This document shows positions 1,803 through 27,215 of a DNA stretch of 64,000 nt, in pieces. Within the stretch, counting starts at the first letter, position 1, and every line of letters begins with the position of its first letter. The notes beneath the pieces are model-generated. The model saw nothing but the letters and a program-made list of their open reading frames with translations. It was not told the DNA's origin and ran no database searches. Source of the DNA: a virus; IMG/VR virus record IMGVR_UViG_3300046660_000488, positions 310,001 through 374,000 of that record; one strand, given 5' to 3'. The translations under genes were made by a program, and so were the position numbers.

Positions 1803-2251
1803 TGGAAAAGCAACCGCCGTTCGAAGGCCACGAGTGGGACGCCCAACTGATCGAAGGTCGGTGGCGCGTCGGTATGAAGGGCAACCTCGACACACCGCAT
1901 GACGCGATCCTGTCGATCCATCCCGGCATCATCAACGAAGCGCTGGCCGAGCGCATCGCGCGCGACATCGTCGAGCTTCAGAACACCCGCCTGAAGAACG
2001 TCGGTTGGGTGCACGTCGCCCAGTGCGATTTCTATCACTTCAAGGACGGGCGCCAAGTTCTGGGCAAGCTCGACGACGGCGAGGTCATGATCCTCTACTG
2101 GGAGGACAAGACCGACTACAAGGACACCTGCGACACCGTCACCTACAAGGCCGGGTGGAGCAACGGTGAACGCTGCATGGACGGCGGCCGGAACACCCAT
2201 GGCCGTCTGCTCGTTTTCGAACCGACCTTCGTACGCGCCATTCCGGAATAA
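1802..2251 (+). CDS. hypothetical phage protein (149 aa)
   Basis: It starts on the last base of the previous stop codon. Soluble, 149 residues, with many Trp/His/Asp residues and no recognised family. It is followed after three bases by another short gene, so it belongs to the same operon as 1527-2603. Function unknown. Confidence 0.7.
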   Translation: MEKQPPFEGHEWDAQLIEGRWRVGMKGNLDTPHDAILSIHPGIINEALAERIARDIVELQNTRLKNVGWVHVAQCDFYHFKDGRQVLGKLDDGEVMILYWEDKTDYKDTCDTVTYKAGWSNGERCMDGGRNTHGRLLVFEPTFVRAIPE

Positions 2252-2254
2252 GCC

Positions 2255-2422
2255 ATGCGGCGGGAACGCTTCTTCACCTTGCCGAGCAACATCGGCTTCC
2301 AAGTCCGCGACCGTGAAACGATGCAATGCGTCGAGGAACGCGGCGGGATGTTGGTGTTCAAGTCGCAAACCGGCGCCAGTAAAGCCGCAGCACGCCTCAA
2401 CCGGGAGACCAAAAATGTTTAA
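2255..2422 (+). CDS. small basic phage protein (55 aa)
   Basis: A 55-residue Arg/Lys-rich frame begins with ATG three bases after the preceding stop and ends overlapping the ATG at 2415 (AAAAATGTTTAA junction). Its codon choice matches the neighbours. The fit between flanking genes is the main support. No function is suggested beyond possible nucleic-acid binding from its charge. Confidence 0.6.
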   Translation: MRRERFFTLPSNIGFQVRDRETMQCVEERGGMLVFKSQTGASKAAARLNRETKNV

Positions 2423-2603
2423 GAACCTGCCGTTTGATCTGAACCTGATCCTGTCGAGGTCGCCGCACGACGCCAACGAAGACAACGGCCTCGTGCTGGT
2501 GGTCGGCCCTGACACGCCGCCGCACTCGCATCCGATGGGGCTTCGCGCTCCGGCGTTCATGGCCTTCATCGAAAAGATGATGACCAACCCAACCGTCCAC
2601 TAA
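2415..2603 (+). CDS. small phage protein (62 aa)
   Basis: ATG at 2415 overlaps the end of the previous gene by eight bases. The 62-residue product is soluble, with a His/Pro-rich middle. It converges on the minus-strand ADP-ribosyltransferase gene, whose last codons overlap this one by four bases. No recognised motif. Confidence 0.6.
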   Translation: MFKNLPFDLNLILSRSPHDANEDNGLVLVVGPDTPPHSHPMGLRAPAFMAFIEKMMTNPTVH

Positions 2604-3508
2604 GCGACGCGGAACCCGTTGACGGCCTTGTCGTCCCAGAACACGTAGGCGTGGTGCTTGAAACCACCGCCCATGGTGATGCCACCGGCGTACTGAATGC
2701 CGGTGATGCGGTCTGCCTGTAGCAGGCGCCGGAAGAGGGCGTGTGCCTCTTCGTTGTGGATGAACGGGCTGTCCGCGCCGATGCCCGTGTAGACCTCACG
2801 GAACGACGGCAGGTCGCCATCCTCGCGCTCATAGCTCGTCACGAAATTGGCGACGTCACGGGCGGTGGCCCGGTCGTCGAATTTGTTGAGCACGCTGATC
2901 AGATCGTTCAGCACACCTCGGGTGATCGTCGCGTCGGCGATCAGGACCCGACGCAGATATTCATCCGGAACATCGAAGACCGCGAGCCCGGCGTTCGACA
3001 CCGGCATCTTTTTCTGGATGACGGCCGTACCGTCCAGCTTGACGCGGACCTCGTAGGTGCGCGCCAGCTTCTTCCACTGTTCAGCCGCGTACGCCATGCG
3101 CTTGGCTTCCTCAGCCTTGCGGAGATCGTTCGTCACGACTCCCCATTGGCCGCCGTCCGAAAACTCGACGGTGGAAGACCAGTACGCGGTCTCCCGGCTG
3201 TGATCGACACCATTGGCGTCGATCTTGGACGCCAGCATGCGGCAGTATTTCTGGACGACTTCCTGCTTGGTCTTGGCGCTGGTGCGGAAGATCACGTCTC
3301 CCGGTGTGTCCGTGCCCTTGGTCATGTAATCGCCCGCGACGCGGCGGCTGTCGGTCAGGTAGATGCCATGGCCGAACAGACCGTAGAGCGAAGTCTTCTC
3401 CGTCTCGAAACTGTCGATCTTGGCAGAGTCGCCACGATACAGGCGGACATGACCCGGCTTGGGAGCCGGGACCTTGGTGGCTTCGGAGAGAATTTCATTC
3501 GCGCGCAT
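2600..3508 (-). CDS. predicted mono-ADP-ribosyltransferase, possibly packaged in the virion
   Basis: Predicted to transfer ADP-ribose from NAD+ to a target (protein or nucleic acid) early in infection. Visible ART-fold motifs: LYRGD at residues 23-27 (NAD-binding beta strand), GHGIYLT at 46-52 followed by A58 and Y61 (the G-x-GIYxTd...A..Y signature of PARP-like and polyvalent-protein ARTs), and a C-terminal block near 278-291 ending HHAYVFWDD. Length 302 aa. I chose ATG 3508 over a longer TTG/ATG option because a CATAAATA late-type box lies just upstream, which makes an upstream start impossible on that transcript. The N-terminus MRANEILSEA resembles a T4 capsid-targeting peptide with a gp21-type cleavage site (L-S-E before A). 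Divergent from a NADAR gene. Family assignment is from motifs only, and the catalytic third motif is uncertain. Confidence 0.7.
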   Translation of the reverse strand: MRANEILSEATKVPAPKPGHVRLYRGDSAKIDSFETEKTSLYGLFGHGIYLTDSRRVAGDYMTKGTDTPGDVIFRTSAKTKQEVVQKYCRMLASKIDANGVDHSRETAYWSSTVEFSDGGQWGVVTNDLRKAEEAKRMAYAAEQWKKLARTYEVRVKLDGTAVIQKKMPVSNAGLAVFDVPDEYLRRVLIADATITRGVLNDLISVLNKFDDRATARDVANFVTSYEREDGDLPSFREVYTGIGADSPFIHNEEAHALFRRLLQADRITGIQYAGGITMGGGFKHHAYVFWDDKAVNGFRVA

Positions 3509-3513
3509 GGCCT

Positions 3514-3521
3514 TATTTATG
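3514..3521 (-). promoter_or_regulatory. late-type box CATAAATA for the ART gene
   Basis: On the minus strand CATAAATA ends five bases before the ATG at 3508. It matches the T4 late-promoter element TATAAATA in seven of eight positions. With the usual spacing, transcription would begin at or next to the start codon, so the mRNA would be leaderless. Confidence 0.55.
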
Positions 3522-3530
3522 GTTGATTTT

Positions 3531-3539
3531 CGTTGACCA
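3531..3539 (+). promoter_or_regulatory. TTGACCA element upstream of the NADAR gene
   Basis: CGTTGACCA at this position belongs to the recurrent TGGTTNACCA family found before several non-structural genes. It may act as a -35 (TTGACC) with a weak -10 (CTATGG) 17 bases downstream, 50 bases before the NADAR start. Confidence 0.4.
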
Positions 3540-3588
3540 AAAACTCGCAGCACGCCTATGGTGCAGGCTTCAGTTACCGGATCACGCC

Positions 3589-4152
3589 ATGCCCTCGTTC
3601 ACCGTCATGCACGCTCATCAGAAGGTCAGCGAGAGCGAGGACTACGTGTTTTTCCTCAACGGCCCGTTGAGCCAATGGCACAAGTCCACGTTCCAGCAGC
3701 GGCTGATCTACAACGGCGAACTCTTCACGTTCAGCCACGCCGAGCAGTACATGATGGCGGGCAAGGCTGTCCTGTTCGACGACTACGAAACGCTGGAAGA
3801 CATCCTGAAGGCCAAGACCCCGGACGAGCAGAAGGCGCTCGGCAAGAAAGTCAAGAATTTCAACCAGACCAAGTGGGATTCCAACGCCCGCAAGATCGTC
3901 CTGCGCGGCAATCTGGCCAAGTTCAGCCAGAACGAAGACCTCAAGCACTACCTGCTGTCGTTCGACCGCAACAAGCGCTTCGTCGAGGGCGCGTGGTACG
4001 ATCCGGTCTGGGGCGTCAAGCTGGCGTGGGACAACCCGCTGATCCTCAACCCGGCCAACTGGCAGGGGACGAACTGGCTGGGCGGTGTGCACGACATCGT
4101 CCGCCAAATCCTGATCCATGATCCGTCGCTGGACCTGATGTCGGATGCGTGA
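3589..4152 (+). CDS. NADAR-domain protein (ADP-ribose-related N-glycosidase fold, YbiA/RibX-like)
   Basis: NADAR proteins cleave N-glycosidic bonds of riboflavin intermediates or remove ADP-ribose from guanine. In some toxin systems they neutralise DarT-type ADP-ribosylation of DNA. The 187-aa product spans the whole domain: FFLNGPLSQWH at 21-31, FSHAEQYMMAGKA at 48-60, KFSQN near 111-115, a YDPVWG block at 137-142 and WLGGVHDIVRQI near 163-174. ATG 3589 is chosen; ATG 3607 is an alternative. It lies 80 bases from, and divergent to, the ART gene, and overlaps the next gene by eight bases. That it opposes the ART, or a host DarT-like defence, is inference. Confidence 0.82.
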   Translation: MPSFTVMHAHQKVSESEDYVFFLNGPLSQWHKSTFQQRLIYNGELFTFSHAEQYMMAGKAVLFDDYETLEDILKAKTPDEQKALGKKVKNFNQTKWDSNARKIVLRGNLAKFSQNEDLKHYLLSFDRNKRFVEGAWYDPVWGVKLAWDNPLILNPANWQGTNWLGGVHDIVRQILIHDPSLDLMSDA

Positions 4153-5170
4153 GCCCTTCATCTTGCATGGCAAGGAAGTCGTGCCCGGCCAGACGCTGAA
4201 GGTCATCCGCGACCAGATCAACTTCGCACACTGGGCACATGCCGAAGGCTATCCGGTCGTCGGCATGCTGTGCACGGTCGCCGAAGAGCAGGACTTGATC
4301 GACACGCACATTCACATGCGGTTCAAGGCCACCGACATCGGTTATCCGGACCGTGAAGACGATGACGACCGCACGGTCGGCCGCAATTTGGAGCGCGCCT
4401 CACTGGGACTGCCGGGCGACCCGGTGGAACCCGAGCTTTTCATCGATCCGATCCCGATCACCAAAGAGCTTCGGCCGATTGACCGGCTCATCCGGCCGCT
4501 CCTGCTGCGCTATCCGTCGCTCTATCGCAAGCGCATTGAAGTGCTGTTCAGCATTTTCCTGTCGAGCGGTTTCGAGTGGAAAGACGGCGTCATCGTCCCC
4601 GACCGTTACGACCTGACCAAGCATCCGTTCGACCGTGGCCTGCACATCAATCCGCTGCGGTACATGAAAGAATTCGACACGGTCTACACGTCGCAAATGC
4701 TGCACGTGGACCAGCCGACAGACCATGGCGATCTTACTGAAGGCGTGCGGCAACTTTACGTCAAGATGGCGGAAGACCGGGCCAAGGAACTTGAACGGAA
4801 GCTGGCCGAAGACTTGGAACGGTCCAGCCGAATCGACGAGATTTGCAGCACGTGCATCCCCGGCGACACGCTGAATCGTCTCGAACACTCCGTCGTGGCC
4901 TACATGGTCCACAGCAACATGATCAGCATGTTCAGCAAAGGCGTCCTCTGGGACATGCCGGTTGAAGTAGAGCAATCCTGCTACGACGCTGCGTGCGAGT
5001 TCATGGATGCGATGGTCAACAGCCATGATTTCCTCGCCTATCCGAAATCAATACCGATTGAGAAATTCAACAATACACACATCAATGAAATCGCGATGTG
5101 TTGGAATGATTTCCATCGGTCGCGCAAGCCCAGTGAAGGGAAGTACTGGAGCGATATCCCGTACATCTAA
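4145..5170 (+). CDS. hypothetical phage protein (341 aa)
   Basis: The ATG overlaps the end of the NADAR gene by eight bases, so the two are co-expressed. The 341-residue soluble protein has a strongly charged helical stretch (residues about 200-235, Lys/Glu rich) and no motif I recognise. The coupling makes it a candidate functional partner of the NADAR protein, but nothing in the sequence shows its activity. Confidence 0.75.
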   Translation: MREPFILHGKEVVPGQTLKVIRDQINFAHWAHAEGYPVVGMLCTVAEEQDLIDTHIHMRFKATDIGYPDREDDDDRTVGRNLERASLGLPGDPVEPELFIDPIPITKELRPIDRLIRPLLLRYPSLYRKRIEVLFSIFLSSGFEWKDGVIVPDRYDLTKHPFDRGLHINPLRYMKEFDTVYTSQMLHVDQPTDHGDLTEGVRQLYVKMAEDRAKELERKLAEDLERSSRIDEICSTCIPGDTLNRLEHSVVAYMVHSNMISMFSKGVLWDMPVEVEQSCYDAACEFMDAMVNSHDFLAYPKSIPIEKFNNTHINEIAMCWNDFHRSRKPSEGKYWSDIPYI

Positions 5171-5183
5171 TCGGCACAGCCTC

Positions 5184-5205
5184 TTTACATGGGTAACCAT
5201 GTAAA
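5184..5205. promoter_or_regulatory. perfect 9-bp palindrome (operator or hairpin)
   Basis: TTTACATGG and CCATGTAAA are separated by GTAA. There is no T-run on the plus side (A-rich instead), so a plus-strand terminator is doubtful. A dimeric repressor site in front of the 5283 operon fits as well. It contains GTAACCA, close to the TGGTTNACCA motif seen elsewhere. Confidence 0.55.
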
Positions 5206-5282
5206 AGAAAAATCCGTTTGCCGTGCGTAATCTGGTGCACTAAAGTGCTCGCAGACAGTTCGCGCGTACTCGGAGAGCAACC

Positions 5283-5567
5283 TTGCCCAAGGCGTACTAC
5301 CACGTTGAGCAACACCCCGGCGTGATTGTGCTCACGGACCTGAACGGGTCTCAGAGCATCACCAACGACGCCGAAGCGGTGATTGTTGACCTCTCCACGA
5401 AATACGATCTCGTCAAGAACCGGGTGATCTACCGTGACTCGATGGGCCGTTACGACGGTCTGGCCGTCAAGGGCAACCGCTTCGTCGGTTTCATCCACAT
5501 CGGCCTCGACGACAAGCACAAAGCGATCATGGCTGCGGCCAGCCGCGAGCGGTGGCCCGACCGATGA
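5283..5567 (+). CDS. hypothetical phage protein (94 aa)
   Basis: TTG start preceded by GGAGAG. First gene of a tightly overlapping operon running to 7483. The 94-residue product is soluble and beta-rich by composition, and I recognise no family. The stop overlaps the next ATG (ATGA). Confidence 0.65.
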   Translation: MPKAYYHVEQHPGVIVLTDLNGSQSITNDAEAVIVDLSTKYDLVKNRVIYRDSMGRYDGLAVKGNRFVGFIHIGLDDKHKAIMAAASRERWPDR

Positions 5568-5749
5568 TGATCCGCTCCGCGATGCTCGAACGCATCGCCC
5601 GACTCATCAGCCCGCACGATTGGGCGGCCTTCGACCAGTTGTCCACGGAGGACTATCGCTTCGTGGGTCTGAGCATCGAACCGTCGCTGGACAAGGCCGA
5701 TAAGATCATCGCGATGATCGAAGAAGATCGAGCGGGAAGGCTGTACTGA
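5564..5749 (+). CDS. small phage protein (61 aa)
   Basis: The ATG at 5564 sits in an ATGATGATG run overlapping the previous stop; the following ATG at 5567 is an alternative. The 61-residue helical protein is without known motif. It ends overlapping the next gene by one base. Confidence 0.6.
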   Translation: MMIRSAMLERIARLISPHDWAAFDQLSTEDYRFVGLSIEPSLDKADKIIAMIEEDRAGRLY

Positions 5750-6108
5750 TGGCGCGCATTTCCACACACAACAAGACCATGGTGATCGTCGAAGAGACGG
5801 TGCAGCGCGTCTATCTGCTCGACCCGGACGACCAGAAAACGGCCCATACCGTCGAAGCCTTGCGTGGGCTGGTGTCCGGCCAATATCTCGAAGGCATTCC
5901 GATGTCGTGGGACAAGCCGATCACGCTGGGCAAGCGCGCCAAGAAGGCGCCGCTGATGCCCAACATCACGCTGCGCGAACTGAACGAAGTCGAGCGCTTC
6001 AGCACGTTCGCCAAGCTGACGGTCGTCGTTCCGGACGAGACCGGCAATCCGTCCTTGGAGTTCAACTTCACCAAGACGACTGCCTCGCGCAAGCCGGTGA
6101 AAGCGTGA
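5749..6108 (+). CDS. hypothetical phage protein (119 aa)
   Basis: It starts within TGATG of the preceding gene. A 119-residue soluble protein with a basic C-terminal tail (KTTASRKPVKA). No family recognised. It is followed by a GTG-started gene overlapping by four bases. Confidence 0.65.
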   Translation: MARISTHNKTMVIVEETVQRVYLLDPDDQKTAHTVEALRGLVSGQYLEGIPMSWDKPITLGKRAKKAPLMPNITLRELNEVERFSTFAKLTVVVPDETGNPSLEFNFTKTTASRKPVKA

Positions 6109-6287
6109 AGGAAACCCCTCTGACGGCCTACTACCGCCGGATCAAGGCCATCAAGCGTGGTGGCGCGGCGGAACAACGTATCTGGGAAGAGATCGACAAG
6201 TTGTCGGCTTACGAACAGGGCCAGTACCTGTTCTACAAGAAGCATGGCGACAAGACGTTCCTCCAAATCACGGGAGTAAGCATTTGA
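6105..6287 (+). CDS. small basic phage protein (60 aa)
   Basis: GTG start overlapping the previous stop by four bases. The 60-residue product is Lys/Arg/Tyr-rich in its first half (TAYYRRIKAIKRG). Too short to classify; possibly nucleic-acid binding. Confidence 0.6.
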   Translation: MKETPLTAYYRRIKAIKRGGAAEQRIWEEIDKLSAYEQGQYLFYKKHGDKTFLQITGVSI

Positions 6288-6781
6288 TCAACCTACCAGC
6301 CGAACACCTCGCGCTCGACACCAAGATCAAGAAACTGCGCGAGCAGAAATGGTCGCCGGAGCAAATCGCGTTGTACCTCAAGGCCGACGTCGCCTACGTG
6401 CGGTCAACGCTCATTGATCTGGGCCTGATGCAGTACCGTCTGCCGAAGGCGGCTCGTCCCGTGGCGCCGGTCGTTGATCAAAAGCTGATCGACGACATTG
6501 AGGTCTATGGCAAGGACTTCCCCAAGAGCGCCCAGACGATCCGCCAGATGCTTCGCCACCTGTCGGTGTCGGAAGTGGCCGCCAAGCTCCAGATGACCTA
6601 CAGCGAGGTCTACATCTTCGCCCGCAAGGCTGGGATGATCTCGGCGCGCACCATCACCGTCGCCCAGCGACGGGAAGCCGTCAAGCTGGCCAAGCAAGTC
6701 GGTGAGGCGGCGGCTGCGCGCCAACTTGGCTTCAGCCCGGCCACGGTCTCTCGGTGGGCCAGCACCCCCAAATTCGCATGA
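6284..6781 (+). CDS. helix-turn-helix DNA-binding protein
   Basis: TTG start at 6284 overlapping the previous stop. The 165-aa protein contains repeated HTH-like segments: residues about 15-50 (SPEQIALYLKADVAYVRSTL), 85-120 (SVSEVAAKLQM then YSEVYIFARKAG), and a C-terminal transposase-type HTH at about 128-160 (AVKLAKQVGEAAAARQLGF then SPATVSRWAS). There is no enzymatic domain, so a transcription regulator is the simplest reading. It sits in the middle of its operon and may control it or the palindrome at 5184. Targets are not visible. Confidence 0.7.
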   Translation: MINLPAEHLALDTKIKKLREQKWSPEQIALYLKADVAYVRSTLIDLGLMQYRLPKAARPVAPVVDQKLIDDIEVYGKDFPKSAQTIRQMLRHLSVSEVAAKLQMTYSEVYIFARKAGMISARTITVAQRREAVKLAKQVGEAAAARQLGFSPATVSRWASTPKFA

Positions 6782-6978
6782 GCCGGACCAGCGCCAAAGG
6801 GCCATCGTTCTGGGTCGATAACGACGGCAAGGTCATGCAGGTGATCGACGGCCAGTCGGTGCATATCGACACGCTCGACCCCGGCGAACTGTTCAAGATG
6901 CGGAACACCATCCGCGTCGGCTCGTCCACCTATCGCTACACAGCCAATCCGGTGATGTTTGTTCGACCCCGCAAATAA
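6778..6978 (+). CDS. small phage protein (66 aa)
   Basis: ATG overlapping the HTH gene stop (ATGA). The 66-residue product is beta-rich, with no recognised family. It overlaps the next gene by 20 bases. Confidence 0.6.
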   Translation: MSRTSAKGPSFWVDNDGKVMQVIDGQSVHIDTLDPGELFKMRNTIRVGSSTYRYTANPVMFVRPRK

Positions 6979-7483
6979 CAGCCTCGGCAAGCGCGTCCTG
7001 ACCTTTCGCGAGCACGAGACCATCAACCGGGCCATGCAGTCGGTCTGGACCATGCCCAAGACACTCATCGAGCAGCCGGGACCGTCCACCAAGGACGAGT
7101 TTATGGAAATCCGGATGCTTCCACGAAAGCATCCGGACGGCGTCGTCGCCGAGCGCGTCGGATTGTTCGGCCGGGCCATCGCGCTGCATGATTACCTCTA
7201 TCCGATCAAGGAGGTGATGGTGAACCCGCGCCGCTATTTCCTGTTCGCGCCGGAGTGGGGGATCATGCTGGCCCCGTACACCTTCGTCCTGCCGGACCGT
7301 GATTTCGCGGGCGTGATCCAGAAACCGGCCACGTTTTACTGGCAAGACCCGGACCACGATGCTTGCTGGATTGGGGCGCCGCTGAAGGATGCTCCGCGAC
7401 CGCACATCCATTTCTACGCAGAGAACGGCGAGACCAAGTTCACCACCGATCTCATGATGATGAAGATGATGTACGAGGATTGA
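6959..7483 (+). CDS. hypothetical phage protein (174 aa)
   Basis: TTG start inside the previous gene. A 174-residue soluble protein with many aromatic residues in the second half and a Met/Asp-rich C-terminus. I recognise no family. Last gene of the 5283-7483 operon. A good sigma70-like promoter starts at its stop codon. Confidence 0.65.
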   Translation: MFDPANNSLGKRVLTFREHETINRAMQSVWTMPKTLIEQPGPSTKDEFMEIRMLPRKHPDGVVAERVGLFGRAIALHDYLYPIKEVMVNPRRYFLFAPEWGIMLAPYTFVLPDRDFAGVIQKPATFYWQDPDHDACWIGAPLKDAPRPHIHFYAENGETKFTTDLMMMKMMYED

Positions 7484-7508
7484 CACCAGTCGTCACCTCG
7501 ACTATGAC
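7480..7508 (+). promoter_or_regulatory. sigma70-like promoter
   Basis: TTGACA at 7480-7485, a 17-base spacer and TATGAC at 7503-7508. It would drive the 7695 operon with a leader of roughly 180 bases. Confidence 0.6.
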
Positions 7509-7694
7509 TTCTACATAGAACGCACTATACGACAAGCTATAGCTGGTTCTAAATCAAGACTGCTTCCCGCAACGGTGAAAGCGTCAACGTGGACTGTGTT
7601 GGCAATAGTGTTTGCTGGCAAGTCAAAGCGAGGCTGAATCGCGATTTCAGCACCCTGTCCACTTCACGCCATAACTCCGTCCTCGGGGAGCCCC
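7509..7694 (+). other. untranslated leader, no gene seen
   Basis: This is one of the longest non-coding stretches in the window. It contains small inverted repeats (CTATA...TATAG near 7526-7542; TGAATCGCGATTTCA near 7634) but no tRNA cloverleaf, riboswitch or convincing small ORF that I can recognise. It may be a structured 5' leader. Confidence 0.4.
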
Positions 7695-8189
7695 ATGACA
7701 CGCACGATCCGGCGCCTGCCGGTGAACAGGTACTCACGACCGTTCAGACGGTACGTGTACGCCTTCGCCACCAAAGACATCAACGTCCTGCGCGAGCACC
7801 GCTACCGGCCTCCGCCGTGTCCGCAGTACGTGCATGTCTGGCGTGAAGAAATGCGCGACGTCTATACGTGGCATACGCGCACGGTGCAGTATCTGAGCGA
7901 GTACACTCGCCGGTGGGTGTCTTATGAAGAGCACTATAGCACCAAGGTAAAGAAGCTCCAGCGCTGGCAGGAGCGTGTGCCCAACCCGGACTGGGACTGG
8001 CGGGCCGACGACACGCACCACATGTGGATCAACGTCCATCACCATGTCTACCGCAACGGATCGGTGACGCGGTGCAGCGCCATAAACGTGCGCTTGGATC
8101 GTCGTCTCTACCATCAGGCCCAGCGCGCGAGGGCCAAGGTTGCACTGCGGAATTTGGTTGACGAATTTTATAATGAACCGATAGGGTAA
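7695..8189 (+). CDS. hypothetical basic phage protein (164 aa)
   Basis: ATG at 7695 after a CGGGGAG ribosome site. The 164-residue product is very rich in Arg, Tyr, His and Trp (strongly basic), with no known domain. The composition suggests nucleic-acid or ribosome binding, which is inference only. Confidence 0.7.
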   Translation: MTRTIRRLPVNRYSRPFRRYVYAFATKDINVLREHRYRPPPCPQYVHVWREEMRDVYTWHTRTVQYLSEYTRRWVSYEEHYSTKVKKLQRWQERVPNPDWDWRADDTHHMWINVHHHVYRNGSVTRCSAINVRLDRRLYHQAQRARAKVALRNLVDEFYNEPIG

Positions 8190-8210
8190 CCATATTGTGG
8201 AGACCCCATT

Positions 8211-8561
8211 TTGCAACCCGTGTTCTATTTTGGACCCGAACATGAACACCCCGGCTACGTCATGTTCCGGGTCAGTCGTGGGGAGAAGATTCCTAAGAAT
8301 TGGTACAAGGTGAGCACCCGTGTGGCGACGGTTGAGTCGGAGCATCCGGGCAGTTGTCGGCCGGAAGCCGGAGCGTTGGAATGGCCAATCCTCCAGCTAA
8401 AGACGGAGGCCAACAAATGGCTCGACGACCAGTGCCGTGGGCATCAGGCGATCCTGCTTGAACGGCGTGACGAGTGTGGCGTTTATCACGACGTCCACAT
8501 CGAGTTCAGCCGAGTGGAGGACGAAACCCTCTTCCACTTCATGTTCCATTGCGGTGAGTAA
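8211..8561 (+). CDS. hypothetical phage protein (116 aa)
   Basis: TTG start at 8211; GGAGACC lies upstream. A soluble 116-residue protein with Cys/His scattered (HPGSCRPE, QCRGHQ, ECGVYHD) but not in a standard zinc-finger spacing. Directly followed by the next gene without a gap. Unknown function. Confidence 0.6.
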   Translation: MQPVFYFGPEHEHPGYVMFRVSRGEKIPKNWYKVSTRVATVESEHPGSCRPEAGALEWPILQLKTEANKWLDDQCRGHQAILLERRDECGVYHDVHIEFSRVEDETLFHFMFHCGE

Positions 8562-8777
8562 GTGTCCAAGCTCTACATCGTCGAAGGTCTCTACGAGAGC
8601 TACAAAGCACCGGCTCTCAAGTACTGGGGCATGGTCGCGTTCAACGACTATGGCTACGGCGTCTTCAAGGATAAGGCGGCGGCGGACTTGATGATCGCGA
8701 TGGCGGATATTTCGCAGATTGGTATTCATCCGAGAGACAAACTCGTGAAGCTTCGCATTGTGAAGCAGCGCGTCTAA
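8562..8777 (+). CDS. small phage protein (71 aa)
   Basis: GTG start immediately after the previous stop. 71 residues, soluble, Tyr-rich N-terminus (KLYIVEGLYESYK). Family unknown. Confidence 0.6.
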   Translation: MSKLYIVEGLYESYKAPALKYWGMVAFNDYGYGVFKDKAAADLMIAMADISQIGIHPRDKLVKLRIVKQRV

Positions 8778-8798
8778 CCAATACTTCAGGTAATTTCT

Positions 8799-9125: not shown

Positions 9126-10418
9126 ATGGACATCGAACTGAAATCGGATTTCCTGCGCGTGATGCAGGAGCGTGGCTTCATCCACCAATGCACCAATCTG
9201 GCTGCGTTGGACGAGGTCATGGCTACGGGTCCGATGAAGGCCTACATCGGCTTCGACCTGACGGCTGACAGCCTGCACGTCGGATCGCTGATCCAACTGA
9301 TGGTCCTACGTCACCTGATCTCGACCGGCCACACGCCGGTGATCCTGTTCGGCGGCGCGACCACGCGCATCGGTGATCCGACCGGCAAGGACAGCATGCG
9401 TCCCCAGTTGACGCCCGATCAGATCGAGACGAACGAGGTCGGCATCCTGAAGGTGGTTGACCGCATCGTCGGCCGGTTCGCTCTCGACCAGAAAAAGAAC
9501 GTTCCGACCATCCTCAACAATCTGACGTGGATGCAGCCCAGCAGGACGCTGGACTACCTGCGGGAGTACGGGCCGCACTTCACGATCAACCGCATGCTGA
9601 CGCTCGACAGTGTCAAGACGCGGCTTGAGCGCCAGCAGCCGATGACGTTCCTCGAATTCAACTACATGCTGTTCCAAGCCATCGACTTCCGGTGGCTGAA
9701 CAGCAACTGCGACATCGAGCTTCAGATCGGCGGCTCCGACCAGTGGGGCAACATCGTCAACGGCGTGGACCTGATTCGTCGCATGGACGGTGAGCAGGCG
9801 TACGGCCTGACCACGCCGCTGCTGGCCAACAGTGCTGGCGAGAAAATGGGCAAGACTGCTGGCGGCGCCGTCTGGCTCGACCCGGACAAGACATCGCCGT
9901 TCGATTTCTGGCAATTCTGGTACAACATCGAGGACGGCAAGGTCGCCTCGTTCCTGCGGTTGTTCACGGAGCTTGATCTGCCGACGATCCGCGACATCTG
10001 CGCGCTCGACATCTTGGAGAGCAAGTCGATCCTCGCGACAGAAATCACGTCGGTCGTGCACGGTCACGAAAAGGCGTTGGAAGTCCTCGACACGGTCAAC
10101 AAGGCCAAGCGCGGCGAGCCGGGTGAGGACTTGGTCTTGATCTCGTGCACAACCAGCATCTACAGCGGTGTGCACGGCTACTGCACGTGGGCCGACATGT
10201 TTGCCGAAGACCCGACCGGTGAGCCTAACCTGTCGAAGGGCGAGACCACGCGGCTGGTCGCCAATGGCGGCATCAAGCTCGACGGCGTGAAGCTGACGGA
10301 TGCGCGTGAATTCGTGAAGGACACGGTTCGCAATCGTCACCTTCAGGGCAAGACGGTCCTGCTGACCATCGGCAAGAAGCGCGCCTTCCGCATTTCCTTC
10401 CCGGAGGAACGCACATGA
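9126..10418 (+). CDS. tyrS: tyrosyl-tRNA synthetase
   Basis: Charges tRNA-Tyr with tyrosine using ATP (class Ic aminoacyl-tRNA synthetase, cytoplasmic). The full-length 430-aa product is normal for the bacterial family. Visible motifs: YIGFD near residue 38 with the HIGH-equivalent LHVG near 48-51, GDPTGK near 84, the tyrosine-site QIGGSDQWGN near 200, a KMSKS-equivalent KMGKT near 240 and a C-terminal S4 RNA-binding domain (NLSKGETTRLVANGG). ATG 9126 is preferred to the GTG six bases upstream. It overlaps the next gene by ATGA. aaRS genes are rare in phages. It may keep translation going if the host enzyme is limiting or attacked (inference). Confidence 0.93.
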   Translation: MDIELKSDFLRVMQERGFIHQCTNLAALDEVMATGPMKAYIGFDLTADSLHVGSLIQLMVLRHLISTGHTPVILFGGATTRIGDPTGKDSMRPQLTPDQIETNEVGILKVVDRIVGRFALDQKKNVPTILNNLTWMQPSRTLDYLREYGPHFTINRMLTLDSVKTRLERQQPMTFLEFNYMLFQAIDFRWLNSNCDIELQIGGSDQWGNIVNGVDLIRRMDGEQAYGLTTPLLANSAGEKMGKTAGGAVWLDPDKTSPFDFWQFWYNIEDGKVASFLRLFTELDLPTIRDICALDILESKSILATEITSVVHGHEKALEVLDTVNKAKRGEPGEDLVLISCTTSIYSGVHGYCTWADMFAEDPTGEPNLSKGETTRLVANGGIKLDGVKLTDAREFVKDTVRNRHLQGKTVLLTIGKKRAFRISFPEERT

Positions 10419-10564: not shown

Positions 10565-11127
10565 TGATCCGCCAACTCCTGTCTGGATTTTTCGAAACCA
10601 TGGCCGCCATCTTCCGCATCAACGACGGCGACAATGTCGCTGGTCGGAACCTCTTCATCAGCAGCAACCTCGTCATCATCGACGGCGTCGAATATGACAT
10701 GAAGGGCGTCCCTCCGGTGAAGCTGGAGATCGTCAACGGTTCGCTCGACACGCTAAGGGTCTACGGCAACGCCTATGTCGCTGAAGCCGTCACGGTCAAA
10801 ACCGTGGACGCCAGCGGCAACGTCGTCTGCGGACCTGTGACCGGCGACGTGGACGCCAGCGGCGACGTGACCGTGCACGGCAGTGTCGGCGGAAACGTCG
10901 ATTCGTCCAGCGACGTGACGGTCACCGGAAGCGTGGGCGGCTATGTGGACGCCTCGGGTGACGTTCGCTGCGGCGATGTCGGCCAGTACGTCGAATCTTC
11001 CGGCGACGTTGAGGCCGGAGACGTGAACGGCAACATCGACGCCTCGGGTGATGTGACCTGCGGCGGCATCAACGGCAACATCGACGCCTCGGGCGACGTG
11101 ACCGTGAACACCGGCCGTCCGGCATGA
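10564..11127 (+). CDS. bactofilin-like beta-helix repeat protein
   Basis: The 187-aa product carries an N-terminal 60-70 residues, then about six tandem repeats of roughly 18 residues built on G-x-V/I-D-A-S-G-D-V-x-x-G, running to the C-terminus. Such regular G-D-V repeats fold as a right-handed beta-helix as in bactofilins and polymer-forming proteins, which polymerise into cytoskeletal filaments in Caulobacter and relatives. No transmembrane or enzyme motif. It lies between tyrS and trpS with one-base and ATGA overlaps, so the three are one operon. Filament formation or interference with host bactofilins is inference from the repeat. Confidence 0.65.
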   Translation: MIRQLLSGFFETMAAIFRINDGDNVAGRNLFISSNLVIIDGVEYDMKGVPPVKLEIVNGSLDTLRVYGNAYVAEAVTVKTVDASGNVVCGPVTGDVDASGDVTVHGSVGGNVDSSSDVTVTGSVGGYVDASGDVRCGDVGQYVESSGDVEAGDVNGNIDASGDVTCGGINGNIDASGDVTVNTGRPA

Positions 11128-20393: not shown

Positions 20394-22193
20394 ATGTGGA
20401 CGAAACACTTCCGGAAAGTTGACCGGGCCTCTTATACTTCTGATCAACTTCCTGTACATGCGGGCGACAACTTCAATGGCGCGGCGACAAGCTCGAAATT
20501 TTCGAGCTTCTTGCCGGAGGTCTATGCTGGTCACCCTAACCGCATCCAGCGCTACTACCAATACGCTGAAATGGACCGCGACAGTGACATCGGCGCCGCG
20601 CTGAACACCATCGCCGATTTCTGCACCCAGTCGGAAGAACAGGCCGAAGAGCCGTTCATGATCAAGTTCGACGATGACGCCTCTGAAGCAGAGATCAACG
20701 TCATCAACACGAATCTGAAGGTCTGGGTCAAGATCAACAAGTTCCGTAGCCGTCTGTGGGAGATTTTCCGCAAGACGATCATGAACGGTGACCAATTCTT
20801 CCTGCGCGATCCCGAGACCATGGAATGGCTCTGGGTCGATCACTTCGCCGTGGAAATGGTCGAAGTCGATGACGCCAAGGGCAAGAAGCCGGACAAGTAC
20901 GTGATCCGTGGCCTCGACCTGAACCGTCAGGTCAAGTTCGCCACGCGCTCGGCCGACCCCACCCAGTATCGCAACCCCTTCGGCACGAGCCTCGTGCCCG
21001 GCGCTCGCGCGGCTCCGCCGCCTTCGTCGTCGGCCGGTGGCGCCAATGTGTTCCAGATGGCTGGCGGCGGTCGTGATGCTCGCCAGAACATGGGCGGCCA
21101 ACAGGCCAACGAACTCGTCGTCATCGAAGCCGAGCACATGATCCACCTTTCGCTGTCGGCGGAAATGGACGTCAACTGGCCGTTCGGCCAATCCGTGCTT
21201 GAGCCCATCTTCAAGACCTACAAGCAGAAAGAACTGCTTGAGGACTCGATCATCATCTATCGCGTCCAGCGCGCCCCCGAGCGCCGCATCTTCTACATCG
21301 ACGTTGGCGACATGAACCCGGTCCGGGCGCGTTCCTACGTCGAGCAAGTCAAGACCGACATCCACCAGCGTCGCATCCCCAACCGTACGGGCGGTGGTTC
21401 GTCGGTGATGGATGCCGCCTACAACCCCATGGGCGTTCTGGACGATTACTTCTTCGCCCAGTCTGCCAATGGTCGCGGCTCGAAGGTCGAAACCCTGCCC
21501 GGTGGTGAACTGGTTGGTGAGATCGGCGACTTGACCTACTTCACCAAGAAGCTGGCCCGTGGTCTGCAAATCCCGACGAGCTACATGTCCTTCGGCGACG
21601 ACAGCCAGCAGGCGACGTTCAATGACGGACGTCTTGGCCAAGCAGTCATCGAAGAATTCAAGTTCAACAAGTACTGCATGCGTCTTCAAGGTCTGCTTTC
21701 GCCGACTTTCGACACTGACTTCAAGTTCTTCCTGAAGAACAACGGCGTCAAGGAAGACCTGTTCGGCATCTTTGAACTCCGTTTTAACCCCCCGCAAAAC
21801 TTCACTAAATATCGCCAGATCGAACTCGACTCTGCACAAGTCGCTGTTTACCAGCAAATCGCCGACAACAAGAAGTTGTCGGAGCGTTTCAAGATGAAGC
21901 GTTACCTCGGAATGACTGACGAGGAGATTTTGGAAAACGAGCGCATGTGGAAGGAAGAGAACCCGACGAAGGTCAAGAAGGTGCAAGGCGCCACTTCGGC
22001 CGAGTCGGAGCCGGAAGGCGATCTGGCATCGGTTGGCCTGCGTATGCCCGGAGACGATGGCATGGGCGATCTCGGCGACGAAACGATGCCTGACGACATG
22101 AACGCAGATGGGGCCATGGCTCCAGACGCAGGCGCCGGGGCTCCGCCTCCTCCAGCCGGTGGTGACGCCGGTGGCGGCGGTCCTCCGCTCTAA
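20394..22193 (+). CDS. 20: portal vertex protein gp20
   Basis: Dodecameric portal at the head vertex through which DNA is packaged and ejected. 599 aa, slightly longer than T4 gp20 because of a Gly/Pro/Asp-rich C-terminal tail of about 70 residues and a Gly/Ser-rich insertion near 205-240. Conserved gp20 features are visible: PNRIQRYYQYAEMDRDSDIGAA cannot be missed in residues 48-69 (split here as PNRIQRYYQ and YAEMDRDSDIG), LLEDSIIIYRVQRAPERR near 282-299, FYIDVGDMNP near 301-310, and KLARGLQIPTSY near 385-396. It heads the head-gene block. Confidence 0.92.
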   Translation: MWTKHFRKVDRASYTSDQLPVHAGDNFNGAATSSKFSSFLPEVYAGHPNRIQRYYQYAEMDRDSDIGAALNTIADFCTQSEEQAEEPFMIKFDDDASEAEINVINTNLKVWVKINKFRSRLWEIFRKTIMNGDQFFLRDPETMEWLWVDHFAVEMVEVDDAKGKKPDKYVIRGLDLNRQVKFATRSADPTQYRNPFGTSLVPGARAAPPPSSSAGGANVFQMAGGGRDARQNMGGQQANELVVIEAEHMIHLSLSAEMDVNWPFGQSVLEPIFKTYKQKELLEDSIIIYRVQRAPERRIFYIDVGDMNPVRARSYVEQVKTDIHQRRIPNRTGGGSSVMDAAYNPMGVLDDYFFAQSANGRGSKVETLPGGELVGEIGDLTYFTKKLARGLQIPTSYMSFGDDSQQATFNDGRLGQAVIEEFKFNKYCMRLQGLLSPTFDTDFKFFLKNNGVKEDLFGIFELRFNPPQNFTKYRQIELDSAQVAVYQQIADNKKLSERFKMKRYLGMTDEEILENERMWKEENPTKVKKVQGATSAESEPEGDLASVGLRMPGDDGMGDLGDETMPDDMNADGAMAPDAGAGAPPPPAGGDAGGGGPPL

Positions 22194-23862: not shown

Positions 23863-24501
23863 ATGTCTAAGTTTCTCACTGAACGCCTGACTTTCGACGA
23901 AGCCAATCTGACCATCGAACGACTGGTCGAAGGTGAAGGCGAGAACGCGAAGAAGTCGCTGTTCATGTCGGGCGTGTTCATTCAGGGCGGCGTCCGCAAC
24001 CTGAACCAGCGCGTCTATCCGGTCCACGAGATCAGCGGCGCCGTTGACAACATCAACGAGATCATCCGCAAGGGCGAAAGCGTCCTCGGCGAGCTTGATC
24101 ACCCGGAAGAACTGACGATCAACCTCGACCGCGTCACCCACATGATCACCAAGATGTGGATGGAAGGCAATACTGGCATGGGCAAGTTGAAGCTCATCCC
24201 GACGCCGAGCGGTGAAATTGCCCGCACGATGCTGGAAGCCGGTGTGAAGCTGGGCGTTTCGAGCCGTGGTTCGGGCAACGTCGATGAGAGCGGCCACGTC
24301 TCGGACTACGAGATCGTCACGGTTGACATCGTCGCCCGTCCGTCTGCCCCGAACGCTTACCCCAAAGCCGTCTACGAAGCAATGATGGGCCGTCGCGGGG
24401 CCGTCATCGAAGACCTCGCCCGTTCGGTCATCAACGATCCGAAGGCCCAGAAGCACCTGCACACTGAACTGCTTGGTTGGATCAACAACCTGAAGGCCTA
24501 A
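23863..24501 (+). CDS. 21: prohead core serine protease gp21
   Basis: Maturation protease (herpesvirus-assemblin-like family) that cleaves scaffold, capsid and packaged proteins at L/I-x-E sites. 212 aa, equal to T4 gp21. Catalytic residues are apparent: H80 in GELDHPE and S133/S134 in GVSSRGSG. NQRVYP near 48-53 is also conserved. Good AGGAG site before ATG. It stands between two strong terminators with its own box, so it is transcribed alone. Confidence 0.92.
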   Translation: MSKFLTERLTFDEANLTIERLVEGEGENAKKSLFMSGVFIQGGVRNLNQRVYPVHEISGAVDNINEIIRKGESVLGELDHPEELTINLDRVTHMITKMWMEGNTGMGKLKLIPTPSGEIARTMLEAGVKLGVSSRGSGNVDESGHVSDYEIVTVDIVARPSAPNAYPKAVYEAMMGRRGAVIEDLARSVINDPKAQKHLHTELLGWINNLKA

Positions 24502-24740: not shown

Positions 24741-25988
24741 ATGGATAAAACTCTCGCCAGCATTCTTGGGGCATCCGGTCTCTCTACGGAGATCGTTGAA
24801 AGCCTTCAAGAAGCCTTCGACAAGAAGGTGGCAGAGGCCCGCGCGGAAGCTGAACTGGCGATGCGCGAAGAGTTCGCTCGTCGTTATGAACACGACAAGT
24901 CTGCTCTGGTCGAAGCCATGGACCGTATGCTCACCACGGAAGTGGGAAAGTTTGCGGACCAGAACGCGGCACAGTTTGCCCAGTTCAATGAAGCACGGGA
25001 TGCGTTCCGTGCCGCAGTGAACGAAAGCCGCACCCACTACCAAAAGAAGCTCCGTGAGCACCTGTCCATGACGAAGCAATTCGCCAAGGAACAACTCATG
25101 AAGGAAGCGATGTCTTATCGCGCCGCCAAGAAGTCGCTTGCAGAAGCAAAGGCCTCGGCCCGCGCTGAACTGACCGCCTTCAAGGAAGCTGCTGTCAAGA
25201 CCCAAGCTGCTCGCATGAAGAAGATCGACGAATTCGTTGTCGCACAAGTCGGCAAGGAACTGCGTGAATTCTCTGAAGACCACCGCGCTCTGGTTGAAAC
25301 CCGCGTTAAGCTGGTTACCGAAGGTCGCAAGCGTCTGAAGGAAACTCGCGACGCCTTCATCAAGCAATCGGCCACCAAGGTCGAGCAGATGGTTACGGAA
25401 TCGCTGAAGAGCGAAATGAAGCAACTGCACGAAGACTTGGAGCGTAACCGTCAGAACACGTTCGGTCGCCGTATCTTCGAAGCCGTCGCCGCCGAATACA
25501 TGGCCTCGTATCTCGCCGAAGGCACTGAAGTCAAGAAGCTTCAGAGCATGCTCGAAGGCCAGACTGCCGAACTGAGCGAAGTCAAGACCAAGCTCGATGA
25601 AGCACAAAAGGGCGCCGACCAAATCCGTCGCAAAGCACATCTGGCCGAAAGCCGTGCCGAGCGTAGTCGAGTCATGGCCGAACTTCTCTCTCCTCTTCGT
25701 GGAGAGAAGCGCGTGGTCATGGAAGGCATGCTGGAGACTGTCAAAACCGACAACCTCCGTACTGCTTTCAAGAAACTTCTCCCGGTTGTCATGACTGAAA
25801 GCCGTCGTCCAGCAGCACAGGCCCCGGCCGGTGCACGGAAGCTGATGGAGAACCCCCAAACGCCTACGCGCGCCGTCACTGGCGACCGCGCTAACCGCAC
25901 GCTCTTCGAATCGTCGCAAGCCGAAATCGAAAGCGAAATTGATCTTGAACTCGCGAAAGTCGTCCGACTCGCCGGTATCCAGAAGTAA
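24741..25988 (+). CDS. 22: major prohead scaffold protein gp22
   Basis: Forms the inner core on which gp23 assembles and is degraded by gp21. 415 aa, almost wholly helical and coiled-coil (Glu/Lys/Ala/Arg-rich from residue 20 to 330), with a Pro/Ala break near 360 and a short acidic C-terminal segment. Longer than T4 gp22 (269 aa) as often seen in non-enteric relatives. ATG 24741 has AAGGAG upstream and is preferred to an upstream in-frame ATG. Position between genes 21 and 23 fixes the identity. Confidence 0.85.
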   Translation: MDKTLASILGASGLSTEIVESLQEAFDKKVAEARAEAELAMREEFARRYEHDKSALVEAMDRMLTTEVGKFADQNAAQFAQFNEARDAFRAAVNESRTHYQKKLREHLSMTKQFAKEQLMKEAMSYRAAKKSLAEAKASARAELTAFKEAAVKTQAARMKKIDEFVVAQVGKELREFSEDHRALVETRVKLVTEGRKRLKETRDAFIKQSATKVEQMVTESLKSEMKQLHEDLERNRQNTFGRRIFEAVAAEYMASYLAEGTEVKKLQSMLEGQTAELSEVKTKLDEAQKGADQIRRKAHLAESRAERSRVMAELLSPLRGEKRVVMEGMLETVKTDNLRTAFKKLLPVVMTESRRPAAQAPAGARKLMENPQTPTRAVTGDRANRTLFESSQAEIESEIDLELAKVVRLAGIQK

Positions 25989-26003: not shown

Positions 26004-27215
26004 ATGAACAAGTTTGAAGGACAGTGGCAAGCCACTAAGAAGGCCCTTTGCGAAGGCGCCGACCTCAAGAAGAACGCTGACGGTACTGCGAACAAGACCA
26101 AGCAGCGCATGATGGAAACCATTCTCGACAACACCCGTCGTGAACTGAAGCTGCTGGAATCGGCCACCGCCGGTGCCACCAACGCCGCCTCCATCGCCAC
26201 CCTGAACAAGGTCATCATGCCGGTCATCCGCCGCGTCATGCCGACCGTGATCGCCAACGAAATCATCGGCATTCAGCCGATGACGGGTCCGGTCGCCCAA
26301 ATCCACACGCTGCGCGTTCGCTACGCCGACACGGTCCCGACCGCTGGCGGTGGTGTTACCGCCGGTAACGAAGCTCTGGGTCCGTTCGACATCGCTCGCT
26401 TCTACAGCGGTAACGAAAACCCGGCTAACCCGCGTGCGGCCTCGACGCCGTCGCTGGAAGGTCGCGCTGGCAACCGCCTGTCGATCCAAATCCTGAAGGA
26501 AGTCGTCGAAGCCAAGACCCGCAAGCTGTCGGCTCGCTGGACCTTCGAAGCTGCTCAGGACGCCCAAGCTCAGCAGGGCATCGACATCGAAGCCGAAATC
26601 ATGGCCGCTCTGGCTCAGGAAATCACGGCCGAAATCGACCAAGAAATCCTGTTCAGCCTGCGCGCCCTGCCGGGTACGCCGGGTTCGATCTTCAAGCAAG
26701 ACGACGTGACGGGCACGCCGACCTTCGTGGGCGACGTCCACGCTGCTCTGGCCATCCTGATCAACCGTCAGTCCAACCTGATCGCTCAGCGCACGCGCCG
26801 TGGTTCGGGTAACTGGGTTGTCGTTTCGCCGACCGCTCTGACGATCCTGCAATCGGCCACCACGTCGGCGTTCGCTCGCACGACGGAAGGCGTTTTCGAA
26901 GCTCCGACCAACACCAAGTACGTTGGTACGCTGAACAACTCGCTGAAGGTCTACGTTGACCAGTACGCCAACGATGCGACCCCGGTCCTCATCGGCTACA
27001 AGGGCAACGAAATGGACGCCGCCGCGTTCTACTGCCCCTACGTTCCGCTGACCTCGTCGGGCGTGATCATCGATCCGCAGACCTTCGAGCCGGTCGTTTC
27101 GTTCATGACCCGCTACGGCTACCTCGAACTGACGAACTCCGCTTCGTCGCTCGGCAACGCCGCTGACTATCTGGGTCTGGTCGGCATCGACACCGGTTCG
27201 CTGACCTTCATCTAA
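26004..27215 (+). CDS. 23: major capsid protein gp23
   Basis: HK97-fold capsid subunit. 403 aa. A gp21 cleavage site is expected after LLE (residues 50-52), giving a mature form from S53. Conserved gp23 stretches include VMPTVIANEIIGIQPMTGP (near 78-96), FEAAQDAQAQQGIDIEAE (near 180-197), and VYVDQYANDATPVLIGYKG (near 312-330). Shorter than T4 gp23 (521 aa), lacking most of the T4 insertion domain as in many marine and alphaproteobacterial relatives. AGGAAAC ribosome site before ATG. Confidence 0.95.
   Translation: MNKFEGQWQATKKALCEGADLKKNADGTANKTKQRMMETILDNTRRELKLLESATAGATNAASIATLNKVIMPVIRRVMPTVIANEIIGIQPMTGPVAQIHTLRVRYADTVPTAGGGVTAGNEALGPFDIARFYSGNENPANPRAASTPSLEGRAGNRLSIQILKEVVEAKTRKLSARWTFEAAQDAQAQQGIDIEAEIMAALAQEITAEIDQEILFSLRALPGTPGSIFKQDDVTGTPTFVGDVHAALAILINRQSNLIAQRTRRGSGNWVVVSPTALTILQSATTSAFARTTEGVFEAPTNTKYVGTLNNSLKVYVDQYANDATPVLIGYKGNEMDAAAFYCPYVPLTSSGVIIDPQTFEPVVSFMTRYGYLELTNSASSLGNAADYLGLVGIDTGSLTFI

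What the first reader, a model, noticed from the sequence alone, without database searches (positions are those of the whole stretch)
2600..4152. Divergent ADP-ribosyltransferase and NADAR hydrolase pair in a T4-like phage
The minus-strand gene has PARP/polyvalent-type ART motifs (LYRGD, GHGIYLT, A..Y). The neighbouring plus-strand gene is a complete NADAR domain, a family known to remove ADP-ribose from guanine and to serve as antitoxin to DarT-like ARTs. The two start 80 bases apart and diverge. A phage-borne writer/eraser pair, with the eraser coupled to an unknown 341-aa gene, could modify host DNA/RNA/protein while protecting phage DNA, or could counter host DarTG-type defence.
Basis: partly seen in the sequence, partly recalled or inferred. 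Interest (0 to 1): 0.8.

Follow-up and report, generated by a model that had tools for sequence, protein, structure and literature searches.

The report
Head-packaged ADP-ribosyltransferase in a huge phage
The supposed "writer/eraser pair" is more likely a chance neighbourhood: the "writer" looks like one of at least nine ADP-ribosyltransferase-like proteins that a 578-kb T4-type phage makes late, packs into its head with a short address tag and injects into the next cell, while the "eraser" is a common stand-alone phage enzyme.

Summary
In detail: a 302-aa ART-like gene (2600-3508, minus) and a complete NADAR gene (3589-4152, plus) diverge 80 bp apart. The pair reading does not hold well. The window is part of a 578,292-bp T4-type phage record. 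The ART gene has its own T4-like late promoter (TAAATA, 5 nt before its ATG) and starts MRANEILSE|A, a T4-type capsid-targeting/gp21-cleavage sequence. Genome-wide, TAAATA-N(2-9)-ATG occurs 73 times (reversed control 1). The strict [LI]xE tag occurs in 29/55 such genes versus 0/71 other window genes, and in 8 of all 9 ART-PolyVal hits. A second 517-kb phage has the orthologous ART, promoter and tags; its NADAR lies ~95 kb away, and no other NADAR neighbourhood examined (0/12) holds an ART. The NADAR lacks tag and late promoter and is YbiA-type (Glu). Best explanation: the ART-like protein is a head-packaged, injected effector (T4 Alt/IP logic) from an expanded arsenal that also includes Acb1, SprT, GNATs and a cell-wall hydrolase; the NADAR is a separate NAD/ADP-ribose enzyme. 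Unproven: catalysis (third ART motif unclear in P0001), packaging (no mass spectrometry for this phage), and fold (AlphaFold failed).

The parts
2600..3508 (-). ART-like protein (P0001, 302 aa), predicted head-packaged effector
   Evidence: ART-PolyVal/DUF3990 weak hits; paralogue; orthologue in G001
3482..3508 (-). Codons 1-9 MRANEILSE: capsid-targeting-like tag; predicted prohead-protease cut after E9 (LSE|A)
   Evidence: matches L/I-x-E rule of T4 gp21 (PMC9026906) and T4 IPIII MKTYQEFIAE|A read from NC_000866; shared by 8 of 9 ART-PolyVal ORFs
3514..3519 (-). TAAATA late-promoter box, 5 nt before the ART ATG
   Evidence: only TAAATA in the first 13 kb of the window
3589..4152 (+). NADAR protein (P0002), YbiA-type catalytic set E52, K59, E134
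   Evidence: PF08719 E 1.8e-38; alignments
4145..5170 (+). 341-aa orphan ORF overlapping the NADAR stop (P0003)
   Evidence: no relative found
23863..24501 (+). prohead (head maturation) protease, the predicted tag-cleaving enzyme
   Evidence: phrog_207 E 2.6e-57; TAAATA 49 nt upstream
24741..25988 (+). scaffold/core protein (predicted docking partner of tags)
   Evidence: phrog_237 E 1.4e-4, phrog_10922; TAAATA upstream
26004..27215 (+). major capsid protein; propeptide probably ends KLLE|SATAG
   Evidence: phrog_138 E 8.8e-93; sequence
20394..22193 (+). portal protein, with TAAATA 30 nt upstream of its start
   Evidence: phrog_213 E 6.4e-104

Best explanation
P0001 is an ART-superfamily effector made late in infection from its own T4-type late promoter. 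It is drawn into the prohead by its N-terminal tag MRANEILSE, trimmed after E9 by the phage's gp21-type protease, packed with the DNA and injected into the next host, where it is predicted to ADP-ribosylate a host target in the first minutes (the logic of T4 Alt and the T4 internal proteins). It is one of at least nine tagged ART-PolyVal-type genes and roughly thirty tagged genes scattered as self-contained promoter+tag cassettes through this genome. The adjacent NADAR is a separately expressed, stand-alone YbiA-type ADP-ribosyl hydrolase, not a dedicated antitoxin. Shown: the sequence features and their statistical association. Inferred: late expression, packaging, cleavage, injection, catalysis and targets.
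For: TAAATA-N(2-9)-ATG: 73 sites versus 1 in the reversed-pattern control. In the window TAAATA precedes portal, protease, scaffold, baseplate-hub and other virion genes. Strict tag ([LI]xE, E at residue 8-13): 29/55 TAAATA-abutting genes versus 0/71 other window genes, Fisher 1.3e-13. All 9 ART-PolyVal ORFs found by domain search begin with such an N-terminus, 8 strictly. A second phage, G001 (516,805 bp), has the same promoter/tag logic, seven ART-PolyVal ORFs (at least three strictly tagged) and a P0001 orthologue. There the tag M[ST][NH]WYRN[LI][VI]NL[LMI]E heads otherwise dissimilar proteins. In the nearest proteome-characterised relative, Atu_ph07, eleven tandem genes (gp53-gp63) start M[KR]xxxLxE inside the CDS 31-76 cluster, 29 products of which were found in virions by mass spectrometry (PMC6102473); its ART-PolyVal-like gene starts MKWQDLSEG. 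The first 10 residues of T4 IPIII suffice for packaging (PMC9026906). Rak2-like CBB has the ATAAATA late motif (PMC5259590).
Against: No transcriptome, proteome or cleavage data exist for this phage. AlphaFold could not fold P0001. The third catalytic position (W291+3/+4) is K/A in P0001 and E/K or E/Y in its two relatives, against Q at that place in canonical ART-PolyVal members, so P0001 may be inactive. The named relatives Phosso and Atu_ph07 do not show the TAAATA-abutting-ATG arrangement above control. The tag was noticed before it was tested, so p-values are descriptive.
Confidence: 0.72

Rival explanations
1. A dedicated writer/eraser (toxin-antitoxin-like) pair: the NADAR removes ADP-ribose that this ART places on guanine or another target, protecting phage DNA.
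For: Adjacent divergent genes. A YbiA-type NADAR is antitoxin to the ART YarT in myxobacteria (PMC11125620). T4 itself has alt and NADAR gene 30.3 about 3 kb apart. NADAR active-site residues are intact.
Against: Different predicted expression classes; pair not kept in G001 (about 95 kb apart); 0/12 other NADAR loci with an ART neighbour; one NADAR against at least nine ARTs; P0001 lacks a clear catalytic Q/E.
Confidence: 0.1
2. P0001 is packaged but is a catalytically dead ART relative, acting as a binding protein, decoy or internal-body component.
For: Third motif degenerate in P0001; long divergent insert between the two conserved ART parts.
Against: NAD-binding motifs LYRGD and GxGIYLTDS and the C-terminal G-x-x-Y-x-GG...H-x-A-x-x-x-W block are invariant in three proteins only about 32-38% identical.
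Confidence: 0.2
3. The N-terminal [LI]xE motif is not a packaging tag but another late-gene signal or lineage coincidence.
For: No packaging data for this phage; the motif is short (5.5% of interior 20-mers fit).
Against: Enrichment restricted to late genes, none in 71 others; same tag on dissimilar bodies in G001 and Atu_ph07, there in a mass-spectrometry-confirmed virion cluster (PMC6102473); fits the published T4 rule.
Confidence: 0.12
4. The NADAR is anti-defence: it protects phage DNA or clears ADP-ribose signals of host systems (DarTG1, TIR/NADase), independent of the ART. (Compatible with the best explanation; it concerns only the NADAR.)
For: Phage NADARs hydrolyse guanine-ADP-ribose in vitro and are proposed to counter host ADP-ribose systems (PMC11125620, PMC9503650).
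Against: YbiA and T4-phage NADARs did not rescue DarT1 toxicity in vivo (PMC11125620); in Phosso, B23 and XacN1 the gene lies among NAD-salvage genes, which also fits metabolic housekeeping.
Confidence: 0.4

Closest known systems
T4 Alt (head-packaged ADP-ribosyltransferase)
   Same: ART superfamily, late gene, head packaging with an N-terminal propeptide, injection at infection start; T4 also has a NADAR (30.3) about 3 kb from alt
   Different: Alt is a 682-aa R-S-E-type ART; P0001 is 302 aa with LYRGD...GIYLTD motifs closest to ART-PolyVal/DUF3990; here at least nine ARTs; packaging only predicted
T4 internal proteins IPI-III with capsid targeting sequence (CTS)
   Same: about 10-aa N-terminal tag ending L/I-x-E on unrelated bodies; accessory, variable cargo; IPs block type IV restriction (PMC12373910)
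   Different: consensus is M-R-x3-[IL]-x-x-E rather than MKTYQEFIAE; cargo includes many recognisable enzymes; about thirty tagged genes rather than three
ART-PolyVal domains of phage polyvalent proteins (Pfam PF18760)
   Same: ART motifs; L076 carries a P0001-like ART segment inside a 1323-aa protein
   Different: here mostly one ART per small protein, each with its own tag, instead of one multidomain polypeptide
YarT-YbiA and DarT1-NADAR toxin-antitoxin systems
   Same: ART gene next to a NADAR gene
   Different: here divergent with separate predicted promoters, not conserved as a pair, ART predicted packaged
Agrobacterium phage Atu_ph07 virion cluster CDS 31-76
   Same: tandem genes with the same type of N-terminal tag in a cluster confirmed by virion mass spectrometry (PMC6102473)
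   Different: in G000 cassettes are scattered and many have individual late promoters at the start codon

Membership tests
ART superfamily / ART-PolyVal (PF18760) | Profile match above curated cut-off | tested here: not met
   P0001 18.3 bits vs 31.2; six-frame 19.2 bits, E 6e-4; orthologue 24.5 bits, E 5e-5. Filed as a diverged relative, not a member
ART superfamily / ART-PolyVal (PF18760) | Motifs I and II (R/H in YRG/YHG; Y in GxYLT) | tested here: met
   R25 and Y50, invariant in three family members
ART superfamily / ART-PolyVal (PF18760) | Motif III catalytic E/Q/D | tested here: inconclusive
   K294/A295 in P0001 where canonical members have Q; E in its two relatives one position earlier
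ART superfamily / ART-PolyVal (PF18760) | ART fold | tested here: inconclusive
   AlphaFold pLDDT 37.8 and 42.7; fold search meaningless
NADAR (PF08719) | Profile above cut-off over the full domain | tested here: met
   132.8 bits vs 35.1, positions 10-162/163
NADAR (PF08719) | Catalytic E..K plus Glu/Asp/His in the last strand | tested here: met
   E52, K59, E134 by alignment; Glu = YbiA type (rule from PMC11543638, PMC11125620)
DarT1-NADAR toxin-antitoxin | Asp-type (BC4488) NADAR next to a DarT gene | tested here: not met
   NADAR has Glu; the ART has no DarT profile match
YarT-YbiA type toxin-antitoxin pair | ART and NADAR conserved together in one operon | tested here: not met
   divergent, not conserved
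YarT-YbiA type toxin-antitoxin pair | ART toxic, NADAR rescues | not testable with these tools
   needs co-expression assay
T4-type capsid-targeted internal protein | Short N-terminal propeptide ending L/I-x-E | tested here: met
   MRANEILSE|A; enrichment statistics
T4-type capsid-targeted internal protein | gp21-type protease and T4-type core in the same phage | tested here: met
   phrog_207 E 2.6e-57, MCP, portal, scaffold in the window
T4-type capsid-targeted internal protein | Late expression | tested here: inconclusive
   late-promoter-like TAAATA at the start codon; no RNA data
T4-type capsid-targeted internal protein | Present, cleaved, in virions | not testable with these tools
   only indirect: virion cluster in Atu_ph07 (PMC6102473)

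The most novel reading that the evidence does not exclude
A lineage of 500-580-kb T4-type phages carries an expandable injectome: dozens of scattered one-gene cassettes, many with a late promoter abutting the start codon (leaderless mRNA) and each with a capsid-targeting tag. Together they pre-load the head with many different ARTs plus Acb1-type anti-CBASS enzyme, SprT protease, GNATs and others, so that a cocktail of host-takeover and anti-defence enzymes acts before any phage gene is expressed.
Probability: 0.55. Interest if true: 0.78.

Novelty: new variant of a known kind. Interest (0 to 1): 0.6.

Why it matters
If true, the promoter+tag signature lets one read from sequence alone which orphan genes of huge phages are injected effectors, and turns a list of unknown genes into a testable set of host-takeover and anti-defence enzymes. 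Published surveys inferred packaging of phage ARTs from gene neighbourhood or domain fusion (about 44% of phage ARTs, PMC9503650); here a cleavable-type tag marks all nine ART-PolyVal genes of one genome. It also warns against reading an ART-NADAR adjacency as a toxin-antitoxin pair.

Tried and rejected
Structure of P0001: two AlphaFold jobs (2- and 3-sequence alignments) at pLDDT 38 and 43; the PDB fold search gave no hit with E <= 0.001 and top probabilities of about 0.1 or less, so discarded. Direct homologues of P0001, ART2 or P0003 in phage records and IMG/VR by single sequence: none; GTDB scan with the two-sequence alignment: none. Profile comparison of the P0001 pair with the canonical ART-PolyVal trio aligned the N-terminal motifs at only 49% probability. 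Macro domain as another eraser in the genome: none. The idea that the nearest named relatives share the promoter arrangement: not supported (Phosso 17 vs 13 control, Atu_ph07 66 vs 91).

Full report
What is there. The window is positions 310001-374000 of a 578,292-bp virus record. At 2600-3508 (minus) lies a 302-aa ORF with LYRGD and GHGIYLTD; at 3589-4152 (plus) a 187-aa NADAR protein (PF08719, E 1.8e-38); 80 bases separate the starts; a 341-aa orphan ORF (4145-5170) overlaps the NADAR stop. The window also holds a T4-type head cluster: portal, prohead protease, scaffold and major capsid protein. By capsid protein the closest named phages are Sinorhizobium phage Phosso (77%) and Agrobacterium phage Atu_ph07 (65%), then Rak2-like phages.

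Is the first gene an ART? P0001 alone gives only sub-threshold Pfam hits, but the two it gives are ART-PolyVal and DUF3990 (both ART-type by my knowledge). A paralogue lies elsewhere in the genome (30% identity, E 4.7e-11), and an orthologue in the 516,805-bp IMG/VR contig G001 matches their profile at 4.9e-55 and Pfam ART-PolyVal at 5.3e-5. The three share V-x-LYRGD, G-x-G-[IL]YLTDS and a C-terminal G-x-x-Y-x-GG...GG-x-x-H-x-A-x-x-x-W block. A similar N-terminal ART segment sits inside a 1323-aa protein of another phage contig. The third catalytic motif is unclear in P0001, and structure prediction failed, so I call it ART-like, probably an enzyme, not proven.

The unexpected part. The ART gene starts MRANEILSE-A. 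T4 head proteins that are packaged carry N-terminal propeptides cut by gp21 after L/I-x-E, and the first ten residues of IPIII suffice to send foreign proteins into the head (PMC9026906); T4 ipIII read here begins MKTYQEFIAE-A. The sequence upstream of the ART start is ATAAATAAGGCC-ATG. A genome-wide search for TAAATA-N(2-9)-ATG gave 73 matches against 1 for the reversed pattern. In the window TAAATA lies mostly between genes and precedes portal, protease, scaffold and baseplate-hub genes, so it is most likely a late promoter of the T4 type; Rak2-like phage CBB has the same motif before structural genes (PMC5259590). It is the only TAAATA in the first 13 kb of the window; the NADAR operon has none. 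Of ORFs of at least 90 aa abutting TAAATA, 29 of 55 have the strict tag, against 0 of 71 other window genes (Fisher 1.3e-13); interior segments fit the rule 5.5% of the time. A search for ART-PolyVal domains, blind to N-termini, found nine ORFs; every one begins with such an N-terminus, eight strictly. The p-values are descriptive because the pattern was seen before it was tested, although the cleavage rule itself comes from T4.

Other tagged genes in this genome encode a cell-wall hydrolase, a SprT-like protease, GNAT acetyltransferases, a weak ParB-like match, and an Acb1 anti-CBASS protein (E 7e-37, without an abutting TAAATA). G001 repeats the scheme: TAAATA-abutting ATGs 108 versus 42 control, tags on most of the sampled genes, an Acb1 with both promoter and tag, and one tag, M[ST][NH]WYRN[LI][VI]NL[LMI]E, on several dissimilar proteins. 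In Atu_ph07 eleven tandem genes (gp53-gp63) begin M[KR]xxxLxE, inside the CDS 31-76 cluster from which 29 products were found in virions by mass spectrometry (PMC6102473); individual identities are in a supplement I could not read.

The NADAR. It is single in the genome, untagged and without a late promoter. Alignment shows E52, K59 and E134, the YbiA-type set, where T4 gp30.3 has His and DarT1 antitoxins Asp (PMC11543638, PMC11125620). NADAR occurs in 676 phage records. In B23, Phosso and XacN1 it lies among NAD-salvage genes. None of 12 other NADAR loci has an ART-like ORF within 4 kb, by a motif search. In G001 the NADAR (about 182.5-183.1 kb) and the P0001 orthologue (278.6 kb) are far apart. 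With about nine ARTs among roughly 850 genes, an ART beside the single NADAR by chance has a probability of a few percent (my estimate). The dedicated pair is therefore unlikely, though YarT-YbiA (PMC11125620) shows such pairs exist.

Mechanism. Late in infection the promoter+tag cassette is transcribed; the spacing of 4-5 nt from box to ATG in 48 of 57 cases suggests leaderless mRNA. The tag binds the prohead core, the gp21-type protease cuts after E9, the mature protein stays with the DNA and is injected. In the new host it is predicted to modify a host molecule. All steps after the sequence features are inferred from T4.

Relation to known work. Packaged phage ARTs and CTS-bearing internal proteins are known from T4; Iyer and colleagues inferred packaging of many phage ARTs from gene context (PMC9503650) and noted ARTs and NADARs in jumbo phages (PMC7824862). 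I found no paper in the searchable library that links tags, late promoters and a multi-ART arsenal in huge phages, but that library lacks most subscription journals and bioRxiv. I rate this a new variant of a known kind.

Noticed in passing
G000 137774-138295 plus (L029:1501-2022) and G001 L126:935-1504: Acb1-type anti-CBASS proteins carry a capsid-targeting-like N-terminus (MRAIEIFE, MKFRELLE); in G001 also a TAAATA start. Suggests a pre-packaged, injected anti-CBASS enzyme.
   Followed up: partly
whole genome G000; G001: The late-promoter box sits 4-5 nt before the ATG in most cases, leaving no room for a Shine-Dalgarno: probable leaderless late mRNAs. Not enriched in Phosso or Atu_ph07.
   Followed up: partly
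L007 (genome 465000-484000), coordinates about 1969-8790: Dense island of tagged late genes on both strands, including ART-PolyVal, GNAT and ART-like proteins.
   Followed up: partly
MF403008.1 39484-50592 (L099:27485-38593): Eleven tandem Atu_ph07 genes with the same N-terminal tag M[KR]xxxLxE, mostly 250-270 aa (also 362, 490, 778 aa), inside the virion-protein cluster CDS 31-76.
   Followed up: partly
G001 L138, L139, L140, L136: Tag M[ST][NH]WYRN[LI][VI]NL[LMI]E repeated on dissimilar proteins, a second tag class.
   Followed up: partly
NC_000866 123454-128765 (L117): T4 itself has the packaged ART alt and the NADAR gene 30.3 about 3 kb apart on the same strand.
   Followed up: no
window 2415-3589: The ART cassette (minus) is wedged into a plus-strand operon, its stop overlapping the stop of the preceding gene by 4 bases: looks like an inserted moron-like cassette.
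   Followed up: no
window 47880-48494: 204-aa protein with abutting TAAATA and conserved start IEKIQESPHLLDMLLQMEDVLDSLD, found also in G001 (L145); unknown function.
   Followed up: no
window 9126-10418 and 11124-12275: ORFs whose starts resemble aminoacyl-tRNA synthetases (class I-like), read by eye only.
   Followed up: no
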